DNA of 17,731 bases from Bacteroidales bacterium (GTDB taxonomy: Bacteria > Bacteroidota > Bacteroidia > Bacteroidales > UBA7960): assembly GCA_003554665.1 (NCBI GenBank), contig PWGY01000062.1:1-17731 (forward strand), read 5' to 3'. A model generated the notes under the pieces. That model saw nothing but the letters and a program-made list of their open reading frames with translations, was not told the origin of the DNA and made no database searches. Shown piece by piece: positions 960 to 6,408 of the stretch (the first letter of the stretch is position 1; every line of letters starts with the position of its first letter). Position numbers and translations under genes: made by a program.

Positions 960-1283
960 ATGAGCCAGTTTTCGCACAGCACCAAAATTCATTTCAGCAA
1001 AAATATTGACTACGCAGAAAACGGGATCGTCAGCAAGCGCGTCCTGGAAAAATCCACCGGCAACATTACCCTGTTTGCCTTTGACAAGGGCCAGAAACTC
1101 AGTGAGCACTCCGCTCCTTTCGACGCCCTGATCCAGGTTACAGAAGGCAAAGCCACCATCACCATCGACAAAAAACCGTTTCTGCTGGAAGCCGGAGAAA
1201 GTATTATTATGCCGGCTGATGTTCCGCATGCAGTCAATGCCACAGAAAAATTCAAGATGCTTCTGACCATGATCAAAGGATAA
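960..1283 (+). CDS. Small single-domain cupin protein
   Basis: A 107-residue protein that is almost entirely one cupin_2 beta-barrel. Recognisable parts are the motif-1 region QKLSEHSAPFDALIQVTEGK (about residues 45-64) and the motif-2 region GESIIMPADVPHAVNA (about 79-94). Two canonical metal ligands are visible: His in SEHSAPFD and His in VPHAV. The usual HxH pair in motif 1 is reduced to a single His, so metal binding may be weak or altered. Such mini-cupins can be isomerases, dioxygenases or ligand-binding proteins; I cannot assign a substrate. It is the first of five co-directional genes, 89 bases before the reductase gene, and may share their transcript. The ATG follows an A-rich leader without a Shine-Dalgarno block. 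Confidence 0.88.
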   Translation: MSQFSHSTKIHFSKNIDYAENGIVSKRVLEKSTGNITLFAFDKGQKLSEHSAPFDALIQVTEGKATITIDKKPFLLEAGESIIMPADVPHAVNATEKFKMLLTMIKG

Positions 1284-1372: not shown

Positions 1373-2302
1373 ATGTCAATTCTTATTGCAAGTCCCGGAA
1401 AAAACCTGAACAGGTGGGTTGAGGCCCTGAAAGAAGCCGATCCGTCTGTTCCGGTTTTTCTCCCTGAGCAGGTAACAGATCCTGGTGATATAACATTTGC
1501 CCTGGCCTGGAATCACCCGCCGGGGTTCTTTAGCAACTATCCCAATCTTGGTGCCATTTCCTCATTCGGAGCAGGGGTTGATCACCTGATAAAAGACCCG
1601 CAAATCCCGGAAAAGGCAACCATAACCAGGATCATCGACCCTCTTCTTTCGGGCGACATGGCCGAGTTTGCGCTGGCCGTTGTATTGAAGCACATGCGCG
1701 GGCTGACACGCTACTGCCGCTACCAGGGAAAAAGTCAATGGAAAAAACACAGCTACCTGCGCGTCAAAAATGTAAGCATCGGCATCATGGGAACCGGAAT
1801 GATTGGCCATCAGGTCGCCAACTACCTGCTAAAAGCCGGATTCAGGGTTTCCGGATGGGGAAGGACGCCGGGCCGTGAAACTGCCTACAGGAAGTATTCA
1901 GGAAAGGATCAGCTTGACACCTTTCTTAAAGGATGCCATATCCTGATCTGCCTGCTGCCACTCACCAGCGCCACCCACGGTATCATCAACAATCATTTGC
2001 TGAAAAAGCTTCCTGAAGGAGCCCACGTAATTAATCTCGGCCGTGGTGCCCATGTGGTGGATGCTGAGCTGATTCGATGCATCGATGAAGGCCACATAAG
2101 CGGTGCCCACCTTGATGTTTTCGATCCGGAACCATTGCCGGAAGGTCACCCTTTCTGGGATCACTCAAAAATTGACATAACCCCTCATGTGGCCAGCCTG
2201 ACTGATCCCCGTTCAGTGGCCGGACAGGTAATGGAAAATTACCACCGGCTCAAAAACGGTGAGCCACTGATCAACACTGTGTCAAAAGAACTGGGGTATT
2301 AA
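1373..2302 (+). CDS. ghrA: GhrA-type D-2-hydroxyacid dehydrogenase (glyoxylate/hydroxypyruvate reductase)
   Basis: A 309-residue NAD(P)-dependent D-2-hydroxyacid dehydrogenase, close in length and organisation to E. coli GhrA (about 312). The Rossmann motif is G140-T-G142-M-I-G145. Arg164 in GWGR, just after the second strand, is where NADPH-preferring members carry a basic residue. The catalytic triad is visible as Arg224 (NLGRGAHVV), Glu253 (DPEPLP) and His272 (TPHVAS). Known family chemistry is reduction of glyoxylate to glycolate and of hydroxypyruvate to D-glycerate in the cytoplasm. The next two genes encode a probable glyoxylate-forming aldolase and a glyoxylate-using aminotransferase, which strengthens the glyoxylate assignment. 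The family also has members acting on other 2-oxoacids, so the exact substrate is inference. The gap to the next gene is 60 bases. Confidence 0.88.
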   Translation: MSILIASPGKNLNRWVEALKEADPSVPVFLPEQVTDPGDITFALAWNHPPGFFSNYPNLGAISSFGAGVDHLIKDPQIPEKATITRIIDPLLSGDMAEFALAVVLKHMRGLTRYCRYQGKSQWKKHSYLRVKNVSIGIMGTGMIGHQVANYLLKAGFRVSGWGRTPGRETAYRKYSGKDQLDTFLKGCHILICLLPLTSATHGIINNHLLKKLPEGAHVINLGRGAHVVDAELIRCIDEGHISGAHLDVFDPEPLPEGHPFWDHSKIDITPHVASLTDPRSVAGQVMENYHRLKNGEPLINTVSKELGY

Positions 2303-2362
2303 AGCAGTCAATAGCAAACAGCCATCCATGAATTGTCAAACAGTTAACAACCAAAAAACAAT

Positions 2363-3271
2363 ATGATCTCATTCAAAGGCATCTTTCCTCCCCTACCCAC
2401 TTCTTTTGATGAAAAAGAAAACCTTGCTCCCAGGAAAATCCGGGACAACATTGCAGCGCTGAGCAGCCACCCACTCGCGGGCTTCCTGGTACTCGGATCC
2501 AATGGCGAACTGGTAATGCTTTCAGAGGAAGAAAAATTGAAAACCTATCATGCAGCCAGAGAGGCCATCCCAGCGGAAAAGATCATGCTGGCCGGAACAG
2601 GCGGACAATCAACACGCGAAACCATCCGGCTTACCAGAGAGGCTGCCCGTGCCGGTGCAGACGCCGCATTGGTACTTCATCCTTTTTACTACAAGGGCCT
2701 TATGAACAAGAAGGCATTGGTGAATTATTATCACGCGGTGGCGGAATCATCGGAAATTCCGGTGCTGATCTACAATATGCCAGCCAACAGCGGCATGGAC
2801 CTGGGGGCAGAGATGATCCTGGAAATTGCCTCCCATCCGAACATTGCAGGGCTGAAAGATTCCGGAGGGAACCTGGCCAAAATGAGTGAGGTTACCGGAC
2901 AGGCAAAACCCGGATTCCAGGTGCTGGCCGGATCTGCAGGTTTTCTACTCCCTGCACTTTCTTCAGGGGCAATTGGCGGCATCCTGGCATTGGCCAATAT
3001 TGCCCCTGAAGCATGCACAGGGATTTACAATTATTTCCGGCAGGGAGCAATGGACAAAGCACTGAAACTACAGCAGCAAATGATCCGGCCCAACACCGCT
3101 GTTACAAGGCAATGGGGCGTTCCTGCCCTGAAGGCCGCCATGGATCACCTGGGGCTTTACGGAGGTCCGGCACGTCATCCCATCCTTTCCCTTGACCCGG
3201 ATACCAAAAACAAACTCATTGAAATCATTCAACAAGCAGGCATTAAGCCCAACCTGTCTGTCAACAAATGA
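2363..3271 (+). CDS. DapA/NanA-family aldolase, most like 4-hydroxy-2-oxoglutarate aldolase (HOGA1)
   Basis: A 302-residue TIM-barrel class I aldolase of the dihydrodipicolinate synthase/N-acetylneuraminate lyase family. The Schiff-base lysine is Lys165 in GLKDSGGN and the catalytic tyrosine is Tyr137 in IYNMPANSG. The phosphate/carboxylate loop is GSNGE (45-49), not the GTTGE of true DapA. From memory, GSNGE, PAN[ST]G, KDSGG, FQVLAGSAGFL (185-195), GG..ALAN and PN.AVTR (243-249) are all shared with mammalian HOGA1. That enzyme cleaves 4-hydroxy-2-oxoglutarate to glyoxylate plus pyruvate, the last step of hydroxyproline breakdown. Neighbouring reductase and aminotransferase genes both fit glyoxylate as product. 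Alternatives are a 2-keto-3-deoxy sugar acid aldolase or a bacterial hydroxyproline-pathway deaminase. Family certain; substrate inferred. Confidence 0.88.
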   Translation: MISFKGIFPPLPTSFDEKENLAPRKIRDNIAALSSHPLAGFLVLGSNGELVMLSEEEKLKTYHAAREAIPAEKIMLAGTGGQSTRETIRLTREAARAGADAALVLHPFYYKGLMNKKALVNYYHAVAESSEIPVLIYNMPANSGMDLGAEMILEIASHPNIAGLKDSGGNLAKMSEVTGQAKPGFQVLAGSAGFLLPALSSGAIGGILALANIAPEACTGIYNYFRQGAMDKALKLQQQMIRPNTAVTRQWGVPALKAAMDHLGLYGGPARHPILSLDPDTKNKLIEIIQQAGIKPNLSVNK

Positions 3272-3355
3272 CCGGGCATGCCTTACAGCACCTTTGCCAA
3301 ACAATCCGCTGACCGGAAACCAAAAAATAACCAAATAAACAATAAACCAACAACC

Positions 3356-4534
3356 ATGACCACCATGACCACCAACAGAAAAACCCTGATGATTCCCGGA
3401 CCCATCGAATGCGAAACCAATGTACTTCAGGCCATGGGCGAACCACCCAAAAGCCATACCGCACCGGATTTTATCAAAGCTTTTGGCAACTGCCTGAATA
3501 TGATGAAGGAAATTTGGATGTGCCCGTCGGGACAGCCTTTCCTTGTGGCCGGAACAGGAACCCTGGCCATGGAGATGGCCGCAGCCAATCTCATTGAAGA
3601 AGGCGACAGGGCCCTGGTGATCTCCACAGGCTATTTCGGAAAACGGTACGCCGACATTCTTGAACGACACGGAGCACAGGTTACCATACTGGAAGCCCCT
3701 TTGGGAGATACTGTAAAAACATCCGACATTGATGCCGTGTTGCAGCAGAATAATTACAAACTGATGACATTTACCCATGTGGATACTTCAACGGCCGTAA
3801 TGGTCGATCCGGCATCCATGGGAGAGCTGGGCCGCAAACACAATGTGCTTACCGTACTGGATGGAGTGTGCTCAGTAGCCGGAGAAGAGATCCGTCAGGA
3901 AGAATGGGGGATTGACATCGTATTGACAGCTTCCCAGAAAGCCATCGGCGTTCCGCCGGGGCTGGCCCTGCTGGTAGCCTCACCAAAAGCCATGGAGGCC
4001 TGGGAGCTTCGTAAAACCCAGGTACGCAGCTATTATGCCGACTGGAGCAACTGGCTGCCCATTATGGAAGCTTATACAGCAGGGAAGCCCGCTTACTTCG
4101 GAACACCTGCCGTAAGCCTGGTAATGGCCCTTGAAGCCGGATTGAAAAACATTCTTGAGGAAGGGCTGGAGGAGCGATTCGACCGCCATAAACAGACCGG
4201 AAAAGCTTTCCGGGAAGCCATGAAAGCACTGGGCTTAACCCTTATTCCAAAAAATGAATCAGTAGCCGCCAATACACTTTCAGCGCCCTATCTTCCGGAA
4301 GACGTCATGCTGCCTGATTTCATGCAGGCCATGGGAGATGCGGAAGTGATTATTGCCGGGGGATTGCTGCCGGATATCAAAAGCCTTTATTTCCGCGTCG
4401 GACACATGGGGTCAGTGGCACATACCGACCTGATGAACACCGTCAGGGGCATTGCACGTGCACTGAACCAGTGTGCCCACAAAGCCAATGAAGATGACGG
4501 GGTACTCGCCATTGAAAATATAATGACCAGGTAA
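3356..4534 (+). CDS. Class V PLP aminotransferase (alanine/serine-glyoxylate aminotransferase type)
   Basis: A 392-residue fold-type I PLP enzyme, about the length of human alanine-glyoxylate aminotransferase. The N terminus has the substrate-site motif IPGPIEC (13-19). GTGT (66-69) is the PLP-phosphate turn. Asp169 in LDGVCS bonds the pyridine nitrogen. Lys195 in TASQKAIGVPPG forms the internal aldimine, and FGTPAVSLVMAL (248-259) is the family's later active-site segment. Expected reaction: glyoxylate plus alanine or serine gives glycine plus pyruvate or hydroxypyruvate. The frame is open back to an ATG at 3278, but that would add a polar extension encoded by the A-rich leader. ATG at 3356 (or 3365) puts the conserved motif at the normal distance. 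Other amino donors and other class V specificities remain possible. The next gene is 27 bases away. Confidence 0.9.
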   Translation: MTTMTTNRKTLMIPGPIECETNVLQAMGEPPKSHTAPDFIKAFGNCLNMMKEIWMCPSGQPFLVAGTGTLAMEMAAANLIEEGDRALVISTGYFGKRYADILERHGAQVTILEAPLGDTVKTSDIDAVLQQNNYKLMTFTHVDTSTAVMVDPASMGELGRKHNVLTVLDGVCSVAGEEIRQEEWGIDIVLTASQKAIGVPPGLALLVASPKAMEAWELRKTQVRSYYADWSNWLPIMEAYTAGKPAYFGTPAVSLVMALEAGLKNILEEGLEERFDRHKQTGKAFREAMKALGLTLIPKNESVAANTLSAPYLPEDVMLPDFMQAMGDAEVIIAGGLLPDIKSLYFRVGHMGSVAHTDLMNTVRGIARALNQCAHKANEDDGVLAIENIMTR

Positions 4535-4561: not shown

Positions 4562-6199
4562 ATGAAAAAGAGACTTTTATTATTCAAGGGCCTGTTATCA
4601 ATGTTCCTGCTTACAGGCTGCGGCCCGGCACCCGATCAGGAATATCAGGAACTATTGGTTGAAAAGATCAATCAGTATGAAGAAGTCACCCTCTCCACCG
4701 ACCTGTCATGGCTGAATGAAAATGAGCGTGAAATGATCCCCTTCCTTATCGAGGCAGCCAGGGTCATTGACGAAATTTTCTGGTTGCAGTCTTACGGAGA
4801 CAAAGATGAACTCATGGATCACATAATTGACGAATATGCCCGTGCGTACGCAAGGATAAATTATGGACCCTGGGGCAGGCTTGAGGGGCACACCGCATTT
4901 TATCATGGGTTCGACGACAAACCACTGGGGGCCAACTTTTATCCGCACGATATGGAAAGACAGGAGTTTGAGGAGTGGGATGATCCGGACAAAACCAACC
5001 CGCATACCCTTATCCGCCGTGACCCTGATGGGGGCCTTATGGCAGTCCCCTACGCAGAAGCCTACGAAGAACTGAACCAGAAGGCGGCAAGGCTATTACG
5101 TGAAGCAGCCCGTTTATCTGATTATGAACCCCTTGCCGTGTATTTGGAAAAACGGGCAGAGGCACTGATAACCAACAGCTACTACGAAAGCGACAAGGCC
5201 TGGATGCAGATGCGTGACAACAATATTGATTTTGTGATAGGACCTGTCAATACGGGTGAGGATCGAAAGTTTGGGTACAAAGAAGCCCACAGTGCGTACC
5301 TGTTGATCAAGGATCTGGAATGGAGCCGACAACTGGAACGTTTTGAGGCCATGTTACCCCAGATGCAGGCAGAGTTGCCTGTTCCCGAAGAGTATAAGCA
5401 GGAGAAGCCCGGTGACGACTCCAGGCTTTTCGTGTATGATGCATTGTTTTACGGAGGTCACTGCAATGCCGGCCCGAAAATGATCGCTTTGAACCTGCCC
5501 AATGACCCGGCAGTTCAGCAGGAGACCGGAACCAGAAGCATTCAGATCAGGAATGTAATGGAAGCCAAGTTTGATGAAATACTGCTCCCCATCGGAGAAA
5601 TGATCATTCATGAAGACCAAAAAGATTATGTTACGTTTGACGCCTTTTTTCACCTGACTGCTTTCTATGAAATTGCCGAGGGTCTGAGCATCTCACAAAC
5701 CATTGATGGAGAAGGGTCTGTAAGAAATGCCTTACGTGAATATTACGGCATTATGGATGCAAACAGTTCTGACATGATCGCGCTGTACCTTCTTTCTTTG
5801 CTGCATGAAAAAGGTGAACTTACCGAAAAAGAACTGCACCAGGCCTATGTAACCTCCTTTGCCAGCATTCTCCGATCAAGCAGGTTTGGCACTGCAGGAG
5901 CTCATGGTGTTGCCGCAATGATCAGGTTTAACCACCTGAAGAATGCAAATGCTTTCAACCGTTGCCAGGAAACCAACACCTATACGGTCAACTTTGAAAA
6001 AATGCAAAAAGCAATTGAGGAAGGTGCTTCCCGGATCATTCAGTTAATGGGTGATGGCAATTATGAAGCCGCCCGTGAAATGGCCGAAACAGATGGCGAA
6101 ATGTCAGAAACCCTGCAAAAAGATATTGACCGTATCAATGAAAGCGATATTCCTGTTGATGTGGTTTTCAGACAAGGGACTGACTATCTTGATCTTTAG
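4562..6199 (+). CDS. M49-like (DPP III superfamily) lipoprotein with lost zinc ligands; probable pseudoenzyme
   Basis: A 545-residue envelope lipoprotein. The signal peptide ends in lipobox LLTGC with Cys20, so the mature protein is lipid-anchored. The rest matches the dipeptidyl-peptidase III-like family of Bacteroidetes and plant NUDT3 C termini: NAGPKMIALNLPND (302-315), TFDAFF (358-363), RSSRFG..AHG (438-449) and a PVDV ending. In active relatives TFDAFF is followed by HExxH and then E-E-x-K-A-D. Here the first reads Y369-E370-I-A-E373-G, so both zinc histidines are gone and only the general-base glutamate remains. The second reads D399-A400-N-S-S-D404, so the third ligand is alanine. The frame is intact from start to stop, so this is substitution, not decay. 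It probably does not cleave peptides and may bind ligand or act as a scaffold. It sits 27 bases after the aminotransferase. Confidence 0.85.
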   Translation: MKKRLLLFKGLLSMFLLTGCGPAPDQEYQELLVEKINQYEEVTLSTDLSWLNENEREMIPFLIEAARVIDEIFWLQSYGDKDELMDHIIDEYARAYARINYGPWGRLEGHTAFYHGFDDKPLGANFYPHDMERQEFEEWDDPDKTNPHTLIRRDPDGGLMAVPYAEAYEELNQKAARLLREAARLSDYEPLAVYLEKRAEALITNSYYESDKAWMQMRDNNIDFVIGPVNTGEDRKFGYKEAHSAYLLIKDLEWSRQLERFEAMLPQMQAELPVPEEYKQEKPGDDSRLFVYDALFYGGHCNAGPKMIALNLPNDPAVQQETGTRSIQIRNVMEAKFDEILLPIGEMIIHEDQKDYVTFDAFFHLTAFYEIAEGLSISQTIDGEGSVRNALREYYGIMDANSSDMIALYLLSLLHEKGELTEKELHQAYVTSFASILRSSRFGTAGAHGVAAMIRFNHLKNANAFNRCQETNTYTVNFEKMQKAIEEGASRIIQLMGDGNYEAAREMAETDGEMSETLQKDIDRINESDIPVDVVFRQGTDYLDL

Positions 6200-6311: not shown

Positions 6312-6394
6312 GGGGGAGTTCCAGAGCGGTCAAATGGGGCAGACTGTAAATCTGTTGGCTTTCGCCTTCGGAGGTTCGAATCCTTCCTCCCCCA
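6312..6394 (+). tRNA. tRNA-Tyr(GTA)
   Basis: An 83-base type II tRNA. The acceptor GGGGGAG (6312-6318) pairs with CTCCCCC (6387-6393); the discriminator is A6394 and CCA is not encoded. The anticodon loop CTGTAAA holds GTA at 6346-6348. A long variable arm lies between anticodon and T stems, as expected for bacterial tRNA-Tyr. The T loop is TTCGAAT. Its G34-U35 anticodon makes it one of the four tRNAs that normally receive queuosine. Confidence 0.95.
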
Positions 6395-6408
6395 CGCGTT
6401 TTCACTCA

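What the first reader, a model, noticed from the sequence alone, without database searches (positions are those of the whole stretch)
1373..4534. A bacterial cluster of the three activities defective in human primary hyperoxaluria
Seen: three adjacent same-strand genes (gaps of 60 and 84 bases) with intact catalytic residues for a GhrA-type reductase, a DapA-family aldolase with GSNGE, KDSGGN and LAGSAGFL motifs, and an AGT-type class V aminotransferase. Known: in liver, HOGA1 splits 4-hydroxy-2-oxoglutarate to glyoxylate and pyruvate, AGT makes glycine from glyoxylate, and GRHPR makes glycolate; they are PH3, PH1 and PH2. Inference: this run makes glyoxylate and removes it at once, possibly as the end of a hydroxyproline or 4-hydroxyglutamate route. 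The textbook bacterial hydroxyproline route via 2-oxoglutarate semialdehyde does not use HOGA, so this would be an animal-like route in a bacterium. The reductase is of the GhrA branch, not an orthologue of human GRHPR.
Basis: partly seen in the sequence, partly recalled or inferred. Interest (0 to 1): 0.75.

Follow-up and report, generated by a model that had tools for sequence, protein, structure and literature searches.

The report
Bacterial HOGA1-type glyoxylate gene cluster
A Bacteroidales-like bacterium carries, side by side, a close relative of the human enzyme HOGA1 and two enzymes expected to use up the glyoxylate it makes, and relatives in other bacteria place this kind of aldolase inside operons that look like the animal route for breaking down the collagen amino acid hydroxyproline.

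Summary
In detail: three same-strand genes, GhrA-type reductase (1373-2302), HOGA-type aldolase (2363-3271), class V aminotransferase (3356-4534). The aldolase belongs to the HOGA1 clade: best solved match human HOGA1 (252.7 bits, next 147.3); support 100/100 against DapA, NanA, YagE, KdgD; seven active-site residues as in human. Gene order is conserved: of 80 loci, AGT follows HOGA in 49, GHR precedes it in 22, all three in 13. The hydroxyproline idea gains outside support: in a second Bacteroidota group, HOGA lies near proline dehydrogenase (16 of 20 loci), AGT (14), P5C dehydrogenase (9), HypD (7); two relatives of the window's own branch have HypD plus activase directly upstream. Limits: the window shows no hydroxyproline gene; within one Bacteroidales family HOGA does not co-occur with HypD or ProDH beyond chance; outside Bacteroidota the HOGA-AGT pair occurs without hydroxyproline genes nearby. 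The window's AGT is of the yeast AGX1 kind, not that of human AGXT. No activity was measured. Real, and a new variant of known chemistry.

The parts
1373..2302 (+). GhrA-type D-2-hydroxyacid dehydrogenase (glyoxylate/hydroxypyruvate reductase family), 309 aa
   Evidence: NF012013 GhrA 214.8 bits, below cut-off 403; PDB 4xa8 219 bits; GhrA 6p35 192 bits; glyoxylate/hydroxypyruvate reductase 2gcg, human GRHPR by recall, 76 bits; motifs GTGMIG, NLGRG, DPEPLP, ITPHVAS located (their catalytic meaning is recalled)
2363..3271 (+). HOGA1-clade aldolase, predicted 4-hydroxy-2-oxoglutarate aldolase; S46 N47 Y109 Y137 K165 S167 G190 match human S77 N78 Y140 Y168 K196 S198 G222
   Evidence: human HOGA1 best; trees; residues; model pLDDT 90.8, best PDB match 3s5o, TM 0.93
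3356..4534 (+). AGX1-like class V aminotransferase (predicted alanine/serine:glyoxylate aminotransferase); longest frame starts 3278
   Evidence: 2bkw alanine-glyoxylate aminotransferase 1, yeast AGX1 by recall, 246.5 bits; 1h0c, human AGXT by recall, 133 bits; tree; within 500 bases after HOGA in 49 of 80 loci
4562..6199 (+). M49 (dipeptidyl peptidase III)-like lipoprotein whose zinc motif is lost (FYEIAEG); travels with the cluster in the nearest relatives only; role unknown, context rather than core part
   Evidence: (within 2.5 kb downstream of HOGA in 7 of 80 loci)

Best explanation
The three genes form a glyoxylate-making and glyoxylate-clearing module. The HOGA-clade aldolase splits 4-hydroxy-2-oxoglutarate (HOG) through a Lys165 Schiff base into pyruvate and glyoxylate; the AGX1-like aminotransferase turns glyoxylate into glycine, and the GhrA-type reductase turns any excess into glycolate (or reduces hydroxypyruvate if serine is the amino donor). 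The HOG most likely comes from trans-4-hydroxyproline: proline dehydrogenase, P5C dehydrogenase and an aspartate-type aminotransferase encoded elsewhere would give 4-hydroxyglutamate and then HOG, as in animal mitochondria. Shown by sequence: clade membership, active-site identity, gene order, and hydroxyproline operons around HOGA in relatives. Inferred: the reactions, the direction, and that this organism uses hydroxyproline. My confidence: about 0.8 that the module makes and clears glyoxylate from HOG, about 0.5 to 0.6 that hydroxyproline is the source in this organism.
For: Human HOGA1 is the best solved relative by over 100 bits (252.7 vs 147.3 for the window protein; 341.6 vs 188.8 for the family profile). 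Human HOGA1 sits inside the bacterial clade, 100/100. In the wider tree human HOGA1 and the window group share a 24-row subclade (SH-aLRT 97), and a Bacteroidota clade whose HOGA genes are in hydroxyproline operons is one of several branches outside it, so the window enzyme is bracketed by a measured HOG aldolase (PMC3188589, passages incl. abstract) and by context-linked ones. Operon L142: HypD activase (326.1 bits, cut-off 425), HypD (1326.8, cut-off 1100), Xaa-Pro-peptidase-like, ProDH (235.9, cut-off 500), HOGA, AGT, P5CDH (803.6, cut-off 613.6). HOGA is followed by AGT in 49 of 80 loci, and 9 more have GHR upstream without AGT. Two different AGT subfamilies are paired with HOGA: AGX1-like in the window group, AGXT-like in the operon group. 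HypD plus activase lie directly before HOGA-AGT in L023 and in L022 (there HypD is cut by the contig edge); L027 shows only the activase, at its contig edge. L021 has HOGA, AGT, a dicarboxylate symporter and an aspartate-aminotransferase-like gene in a row. Phylum sample: HypD at E <= 1e-200 in 14 of 24 HOGA genomes (one of them a partial, below-cut-off match) versus 11 of 371 others. Of 41 Bacteroidota-titled HOGA genomes, 34 have ProDH and 36 P5CDH, 30 both.
Against: Within one Bacteroidales family of 59 genomes, HypD over cut-off is in 14 of 19 HOGA+ and 28 of 40 HOGA-, ProDH in 14 of 19 and 30 of 40: no association. The phylum association is not corrected for kinship, and only part of the first-look candidates of many genomes were scored. 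Of 9 non-Bacteroidota HOGA genomes searched, 2 have ProDH and 1 P5CDH. Of 16 loci of the phylum of G041 and 13 Bipolaricaulota loci read, none shows ProDH, P5CDH, HypD or a proline-racemase-family gene within six genes, though several contigs end sooner. The nearest relative genome G001 (2.1 Mb) has HypD and P5CDH but no ProDH hit; the window's own genome is not held. Aldolase, AGT and GHR all lie under every NCBIfam cut-off. The base of the HOGA clade is unresolved. No activity data.
Confidence: 0.7

Rival explanations
1. Same module (HOG to pyruvate plus glyoxylate, then glycine and glycolate), but HOG comes from something other than hydroxyproline, for instance free 4-hydroxyglutamate or a pentaric acid (3-deoxy-2-oxo-pentarate is the same compound as HOG; my chemistry, from no call).
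For: No hydroxyproline gene seen in the window; no ProDH or HypD association within the family; Bipolaricaulota keep the pair in 8 of 13 loci with no hydroxyproline gene nearby; L021 pairs it with a dicarboxylate symporter and an aspartate-type aminotransferase.
Against: HypD directly upstream in two relatives of the window's own branch, its activase in a third; no sugar-acid dehydratase appeared among the neighbours that I annotated (not all neighbours were annotated).
Confidence: 0.25
2. The aldolase acts on a longer 2-keto-3-deoxy sugar acid (as YagE, or the fungal L-threo-3-deoxy-hexulosonate aldolase, recalled) and the neighbours are unrelated or deal with a different aldehyde.
For: The fold is shared by many pyruvate aldolases; Asn78 and Ser198 alone are not exclusive, since two outgroup rows have N and S at these places.
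Against: Clade support 100/100 with human HOGA1 and against YagE; all seven HOGA1 active-site residues kept; neighbours are two glyoxylate-type enzymes. No fungal relative was placed in the tree.
Confidence: 0.08
3. A serine/hydroxypyruvate module: the aminotransferase uses serine plus glyoxylate and the reductase makes D-glycerate from hydroxypyruvate; HOGA merely feeds glyoxylate.
For: A serine-pyruvate aminotransferase (3zrp) is the second best solved match (228 bits) and GhrA is named for hydroxypyruvate as well as glyoxylate. It would explain why GHR and AGT co-occur.
Against: In 9 of 22 GHR-HOGA loci there is no AGT next door, so GHR is not tied to hydroxypyruvate from this AGT. The best match is an alanine:glyoxylate enzyme (2bkw).
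Confidence: 0.15
4. It is a lysine-route DapA with chance neighbours.
For: TIGR00674 dapA is its best NCBIfam match at 165.5 bits.
Against: Below the dapA cut-off of 206.15; outside the DapA clade; the three DapA rows read TT and A where this protein has SN and S; conserved order.
Confidence: 0.02

Closest known systems
Human HOGA1 (PDB 3s5n/3s5o)
   Same: Same clade, 40-42% identity, the seven residues taken from PMC3188589 passages kept, model TM-score 0.93
   Different: Bacterial, no mitochondrial context, in an operon-like run with AGT and GHR; activity untested
Alanine:glyoxylate aminotransferase 2bkw (yeast AGX1 by recall)
   Same: Best solved match, shared TASQKAIG lysine region and RxGHMG
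   Different: Separate long branch; not the subfamily of human AGXT (133 bits)
GhrA glyoxylate/hydroxypyruvate reductase
   Same: Best NCBIfam family and among the best PDB relatives
   Different: Below the GhrA cut-off; not the GRHPR branch
Animal hydroxyproline route (PRODH2, ALDH4A1, GOT2, HOGA1, AGXT; recalled)
   Same: B2 operons such as L142 hold ProDH, P5CDH, HOGA and AGT together
   Different: They may also hold HypD (7 of 20 loci); the window shows only HOGA, AGT and GHR
Known bacterial 4-hydroxyproline route (4HypE, DAAO-type oxidase, DHDPS-type deaminase, KGSA dehydrogenase; passages of PMC4113996)
   Same: Also uses a DHDPS-family protein
   Different: That protein is a deaminase giving a semialdehyde; the presumed S. 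meliloti member falls outside the HOGA clade, on a very long branch
HypD trans-4-hydroxyproline dehydratase
   Same: Directly upstream of HOGA-AGT in two relatives (its activase in a third) and near HOGA in 7 of 20 B2 loci
   Different: Gives P5C by dehydration, a different fate for hydroxyproline (PMC7077986, abstract start and passages)

Membership tests
HOGA1-type HOG aldolase | Groups with human HOGA1 to the exclusion of DapA, NanA, YagE, KdgD | tested here: met
   42 rows, 100/100; (without NanA and KdgD): 60 rows, SH-aLRT 100
HOGA1-type HOG aldolase | S77, N78, Y140, Y168, K196, S198, G222 of human HOGA1 (PMC3188589 passages) | tested here: met
   all seven identical in the window; none of 10 outgroup rows has all seven
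HOGA1-type HOG aldolase | Cleaves HOG to pyruvate and glyoxylate | not testable with these tools
   needs an assay
DapA (4-hydroxy-tetrahydrodipicolinate synthase) | TIGR00674 curated cut-off and DapA clade | tested here: not met
   165.5 bits against 206.15; outside the DapA clade
Pyr4H2C deaminase of the bacterial hydroxyproline route | Groups with the DHDPS-type gene of the S. meliloti hydroxyproline region | tested here: inconclusive
   that row falls outside the HOGA clade, but its branch is extremely long and its identity is inferred from its place on pSymB, not annotated
Alanine:glyoxylate aminotransferase, human AGXT subfamily | Closer to AGXT-type than to AGX1-type | tested here: not met
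   246.5 bits to 2bkw, 133 to 1h0c; opposite sides of the tree from the Nostoc/Aedes AGXT-like rows (human AGXT itself was not a row)
AGX1-type glyoxylate aminotransferase | On the yeast AGX1 side of the class V tree | tested here: met
   the yeast and Sulfolobus rows are long branches, midpoint root
GhrA | NF012013 cut-off | tested here: not met
   214.8 bits against 403; best-scoring family all the same
GRHPR (PH2 enzyme) orthologue | Best match in the GRHPR branch | tested here: not met
   2gcg 76 bits against 192 for GhrA 6p35 and 219 for 4xa8
Hydroxyproline catabolic operon | ProDH, P5CDH or HypD in the same run | tested here: not met
   none seen in the 17.7-kb window (frames read by eye; eight of them). 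In the 20 B2 loci, 18 have ProDH, P5CDH, HypD or a proline-racemase-family gene nearby

The most novel reading that the evidence does not exclude
Anaerobic Bacteroidota run an animal-type oxidative hydroxyproline route (ProDH, P5CDH, aspartate-type aminotransferase, HOGA, AGT) beside the glycyl-radical HypD route, so that hydroxyproline from collagen serves both as electron donor (to pyruvate, glycine, glycolate) and as electron acceptor precursor (to proline); the window is a member in which the HOGA-AGT step has been joined by a GhrA reductase, and human HOGA1 descends from within this bacterial HOGA clade.
Probability: 0.45. Interest if true: 0.75.

Novelty: new variant of a known kind. Interest (0 to 1): 0.6.

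Why it matters
The route that makes glyoxylate from hydroxyproline, and so feeds oxalate in primary hyperoxaluria, is usually taught as animal, with bacteria using other routes (recalled; PMC4113996 passages give one bacterial route). A conserved bacterial HOGA-AGT pair and ProDH-HOGA-AGT-P5CDH operons, some next to HypD, would mean that bacteria of sediments, and perhaps elsewhere, make glyoxylate from collagen the animal way. It gives testable enzymes, a prokaryotic relative set for reading HOGA1 variants, and a lead on where eukaryotic HOGA1 came from. JGI names show that automatic annotation already calls such proteins HOG aldolases; the operon context and its meaning were not found in print in my ten searches.

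Tried and rejected
DapA identity: rejected (cut-off, trees, residues). HypD as a strict partner of HOGA: rejected at family level (14 of 19 versus 28 of 40), though strong at phylum level. ProDH as a strict partner: rejected at family level (14 of 19 versus 30 of 40). Other upstream or downstream neighbours in relatives (GH92 glycosidase and heptosyltransferase; helicase-, YqeY- and SelO-like by eye): read as lineage-specific neighbours, not partners. Class I aminotransferase cluster c85: its second member (L024) is not beside HOGA, so the L021 case stands alone. Plasmid records: none at 60% identity or more; the 15 best listed are 31 to 33%.

Literature: ten searches; searches found no paper, and some lists were cut (15 of 23 shown, 12 of 41, 12 of 248). 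No listed title or abstract start described a bacterial HOGA-AGT or ProDH-HOGA operon. I saw listings and abstract starts, plus passages of PMC3188589, PMC4113996, PMC7077986, PMC11278836 and PMC12838403. The library lacks most subscription journals, so this is weak.

Rows dropped or not examined: the HypD, ProDH and P5CDH searches covered the genomes of 50 of the 80 loci (my choice, not random). B2: 20 of 23 second-group hits fetched (20 is the limit of a call). Phylum of G041: 20 of 45 hits fetched, 16 with a HOGA frame in my ORF call. Bipolaricaulota: 17 of 21 fetched, 13 with a HOGA frame. My ORF picker is greedy by length and can miss or mis-start genes; neighbour names are BLAST matches to a small set of my own reference genes, of which the L142 run, L133's two and L144's one were checked against NCBIfam (the L144 one matched nothing). 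The 80-locus counts use tblastn with a 500-base limit; 3 loci were not assessable for AGT and 6 for GHR. Tree 48 used 40 of the 80 loci and tree 73 used 22; tree 92 used 15 of the AGT loci of the first set. Organism names behind PDB codes are recalled, save where or a molecule name prints them.
Full report
What is there. Three genes on the + strand follow each other: 1373-2302, 2363-3271 and 3356-4534 (longest frame from 3278). They match, in order, the GhrA group of D-2-hydroxyacid dehydrogenases (NF012013, 214.8 bits, cut-off 403), the DHDPS aldolase family (PF00701) and class V aminotransferases. A fourth gene, 4562-6199, is an M49 peptidase-like lipoprotein. The window's own genome is not held. 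The nearest named relatives are Bacteroidales metagenome assemblies whose isolate names suggest sediment.

The aldolase. Against all solved structures human HOGA1 leads with 252.7 bits and the next protein has 147.3; a profile of 19 relatives widens this to 341.6 against 188.8. An AlphaFold model (pLDDT 90.8) has human HOGA1 as best structural match, TM-score 0.93. In a 52-row tree human HOGA1 lies inside a clade of 42 rows (41 bacterial proteins and human HOGA1), 100/100, on a long stem that excludes DapA, NanA, YagE, KdgD and the presumed S. meliloti hydroxyproline-region deaminase; the label of that last row is my inference and its branch is too long to trust. The residues that PMC3188589 (passages read) gives as catalytic or substrate-binding are kept: S77 N78 Y140 Y168 K196 S198 G222 equal window S46 N47 Y109 Y137 K165 S167 G190; none of 10 outgroup rows has all seven.

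Gene order. One scan of genome contigs found 195 relatives and kept 80 loci. By tblastn, within 500 bases, an AGX1-like AGT follows HOGA in 49 of 80 (3 not assessable), a GhrA-like gene precedes it in 22 of 80 (all Bacteroidota-titled; 6 not assessable), and all three stand together in 13; 9 loci have GHR but no AGT; 58 of 80 have at least one of the two glyoxylate-type enzymes next door; 22 have neither or could not be told. Among the 23 loci not titled as Bacteroidota, 12 have the AGT and 1 is not assessable.

A hydroxyproline context in the window's own branch. L023 has complete HypD (NF043068 1163.8 bits, cut-off 1100; 978 bits to the HypD of PDB 6vxc against 490 to the next) and its activase (346, below its cut-off of 425) directly before HOGA-AGT; L022 has the same with HypD cut by the contig edge; L027 shows only the activase, at its edge. 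L021 shows HOGA, AGT, a sodium:dicarboxylate symporter and an aspartate-aminotransferase-like gene in a row (403.7 bits to an aspartate transaminase model, cut-off 617); an aspartate-type aminotransferase is what turns 4-hydroxyglutamate into HOG in animals (recalled).

A second HOGA group. A sample of 395 genomes of the phylum of G034 (Bacteroidota, by the title of L039) gave 24 with HOGA, one at 489 bits and 23 at 256 to 346 bits. I fetched 20 of these 23 neighbourhoods. Same-strand neighbours within six genes: ProDH in 16 of 20, always one or two genes upstream; AGT in 14; P5CDH in 9; HypD and activase in 7; Xaa-Pro-peptidase-like gene in 10; proline-racemase-family gene in 5; a family whose L133 member matches oligopeptide symporters in 5; at least one of ProDH, P5CDH, HypD or proline-racemase family in 18; one locus (L152) has none of the genes looked for and one (L150) only the AGT. 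The L142 run was annotated gene by gene: HypD activase (326.1, cut-off 425), HypD 1326.8, Xaa-Pro aminopeptidase-like 209.1 (cut-off 465), ProDH 235.9 (cut-off 500), HOGA (dapA model 203.0, cut-off 206.15), AGT (below all cut-offs), P5CDH TIGR01236 803.6 (cut-off 613.6). This is the enzyme list of the animal route, less the aspartate aminotransferase, in one bacterial run. Its AGT is of the AGXT kind (1vjo 366.9 bits, 1h0c about 242), whereas the window's is of the 2bkw (AGX1) kind; a tree puts them on opposite sides. So HOGA has been joined to glyoxylate aminotransferases of two subfamilies, which argues that glyoxylate is its product in both.

Bracketing. In a 67-row tree the window group and human HOGA1 share a 24-row clade (SH-aLRT 97); the hydroxyproline-operon group lies outside it, as do branches from the phylum of G041 whose function is unknown, and the base of the clade is unresolved. 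The window enzyme thus shares its subclade with a measured HOG aldolase, with operon-linked ones one step out. Human HOGA1's sister row is L153, from a genome of the phylum of G041 (52% identity, SH-aLRT 97). Trees 73 and 92 are quick trees without bootstrap.

Results that go the other way. Within one Bacteroidales family (59 genomes) HypD over cut-off is in 14 of 19 HOGA+ and 28 of 40 HOGA- genomes, and ProDH in 14 of 19 and 30 of 40: no association. Across the phylum sample HypD (E <= 1e-200; 24 of the 25 over cut-off) is in 14 of 24 HOGA+ and 11 of 371 HOGA- genomes (Fisher 3e-13), but kinship is not corrected for and only part of the first-look candidates were scored in many genomes. In an order sample of 149, HOGA was in 4 and HypD over cut-off in 49, including those 4. 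Of 50 HOGA genomes tested (50 of 80, my choice), HypD is over cut-off in 26, ProDH present in 36, P5CDH in 37; among the 41 Bacteroidota-titled ones 24, 34 and 36; among the other 9 only 2, 2 and 1. None of 16 loci of the phylum of G041 and none of 13 Bipolaricaulota loci has a hydroxyproline gene near HOGA, yet 8 of the 13 keep the AGT; many of these contigs are short. So the pair itself is broader than any one substrate source that I could see.

Mechanism judged most likely. HOG binds through a Schiff base to Lys165 and is split to pyruvate and glyoxylate; the AGT makes glycine and the reductase makes glycolate, so that little free glyoxylate remains. Net from hydroxyproline: pyruvate plus glycine or glycolate and reducing power, which in a fermenting anaerobe could be balanced by the HypD branch that consumes reductant on the way to proline. 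The reactions are inferred from family and clade; the last sentence is speculation, and that the organism is an anaerobe is inferred from its relatives' HypD.

Novelty. Each enzyme kind is known. Automatic naming already labels such proteins HOG aldolase. What I did not find in ten literature searches of an open-access library is a description of the bacterial HOGA-AGT pair or of ProDH-HOGA-AGT-P5CDH operons beside HypD. I file it as a new variant of a known kind.

Noticed in passing
window 4562-6199: M49 dipeptidyl-peptidase-III-like lipoprotein (327.5 bits to 6eom) in which the HEISHG zinc motif of 6eom reads YEIAEG; of five relatives that cover it, one reads YEIAEG, three HEIAGG and one HEISMG, so it looks like a family of inactive peptidases.
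   Followed up: partly
L153 (HOGA frame, in G659): Sister row of human HOGA1 in the 67-row tree (52% identity, SH-aLRT 97); a lead for the origin of eukaryotic HOGA1.
   Followed up: partly
L142:2924-12501: Hydroxyproline-type run: HypD activase, HypD, Xaa-Pro-peptidase-like, ProDH, HOGA, AGT, P5CDH.
   Followed up: yes
L023:6519-12072: HypD, HypD activase, HOGA, AGT in a row; here HypD precedes its activase, the reverse of the order in the 15 HypD loci L081-L095.
   Followed up: yes
L021:9585-14430: HOGA, AGT, dicarboxylate symporter, aspartate-aminotransferase-like gene, with an Lrp-like regulator divergent upstream (regulator label by eye).
   Followed up: partly
L084 and L091: An Xaa-Pro-peptidase-like gene follows HypD at a locus away from HOGA, which fits use of collagen peptides (label by similarity to the L142 gene).
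   Followed up: no
window 960-1283 and 88-690: Cupin protein and DJ-1/PfpI-type protein upstream on the same strand; conservation with the cluster not tested.
   Followed up: no
window 6312-6395: tRNA-Tyr (GTA) downstream of the cluster.
   Followed up: no
the 16 HOGA rows of loci L153-L171 (phylum of G041): Asn78 is Thr in 10 of 16 rows, an AGT is next door in 1 of 16 and no hydroxyproline gene is near: perhaps a different substrate.
   Followed up: no
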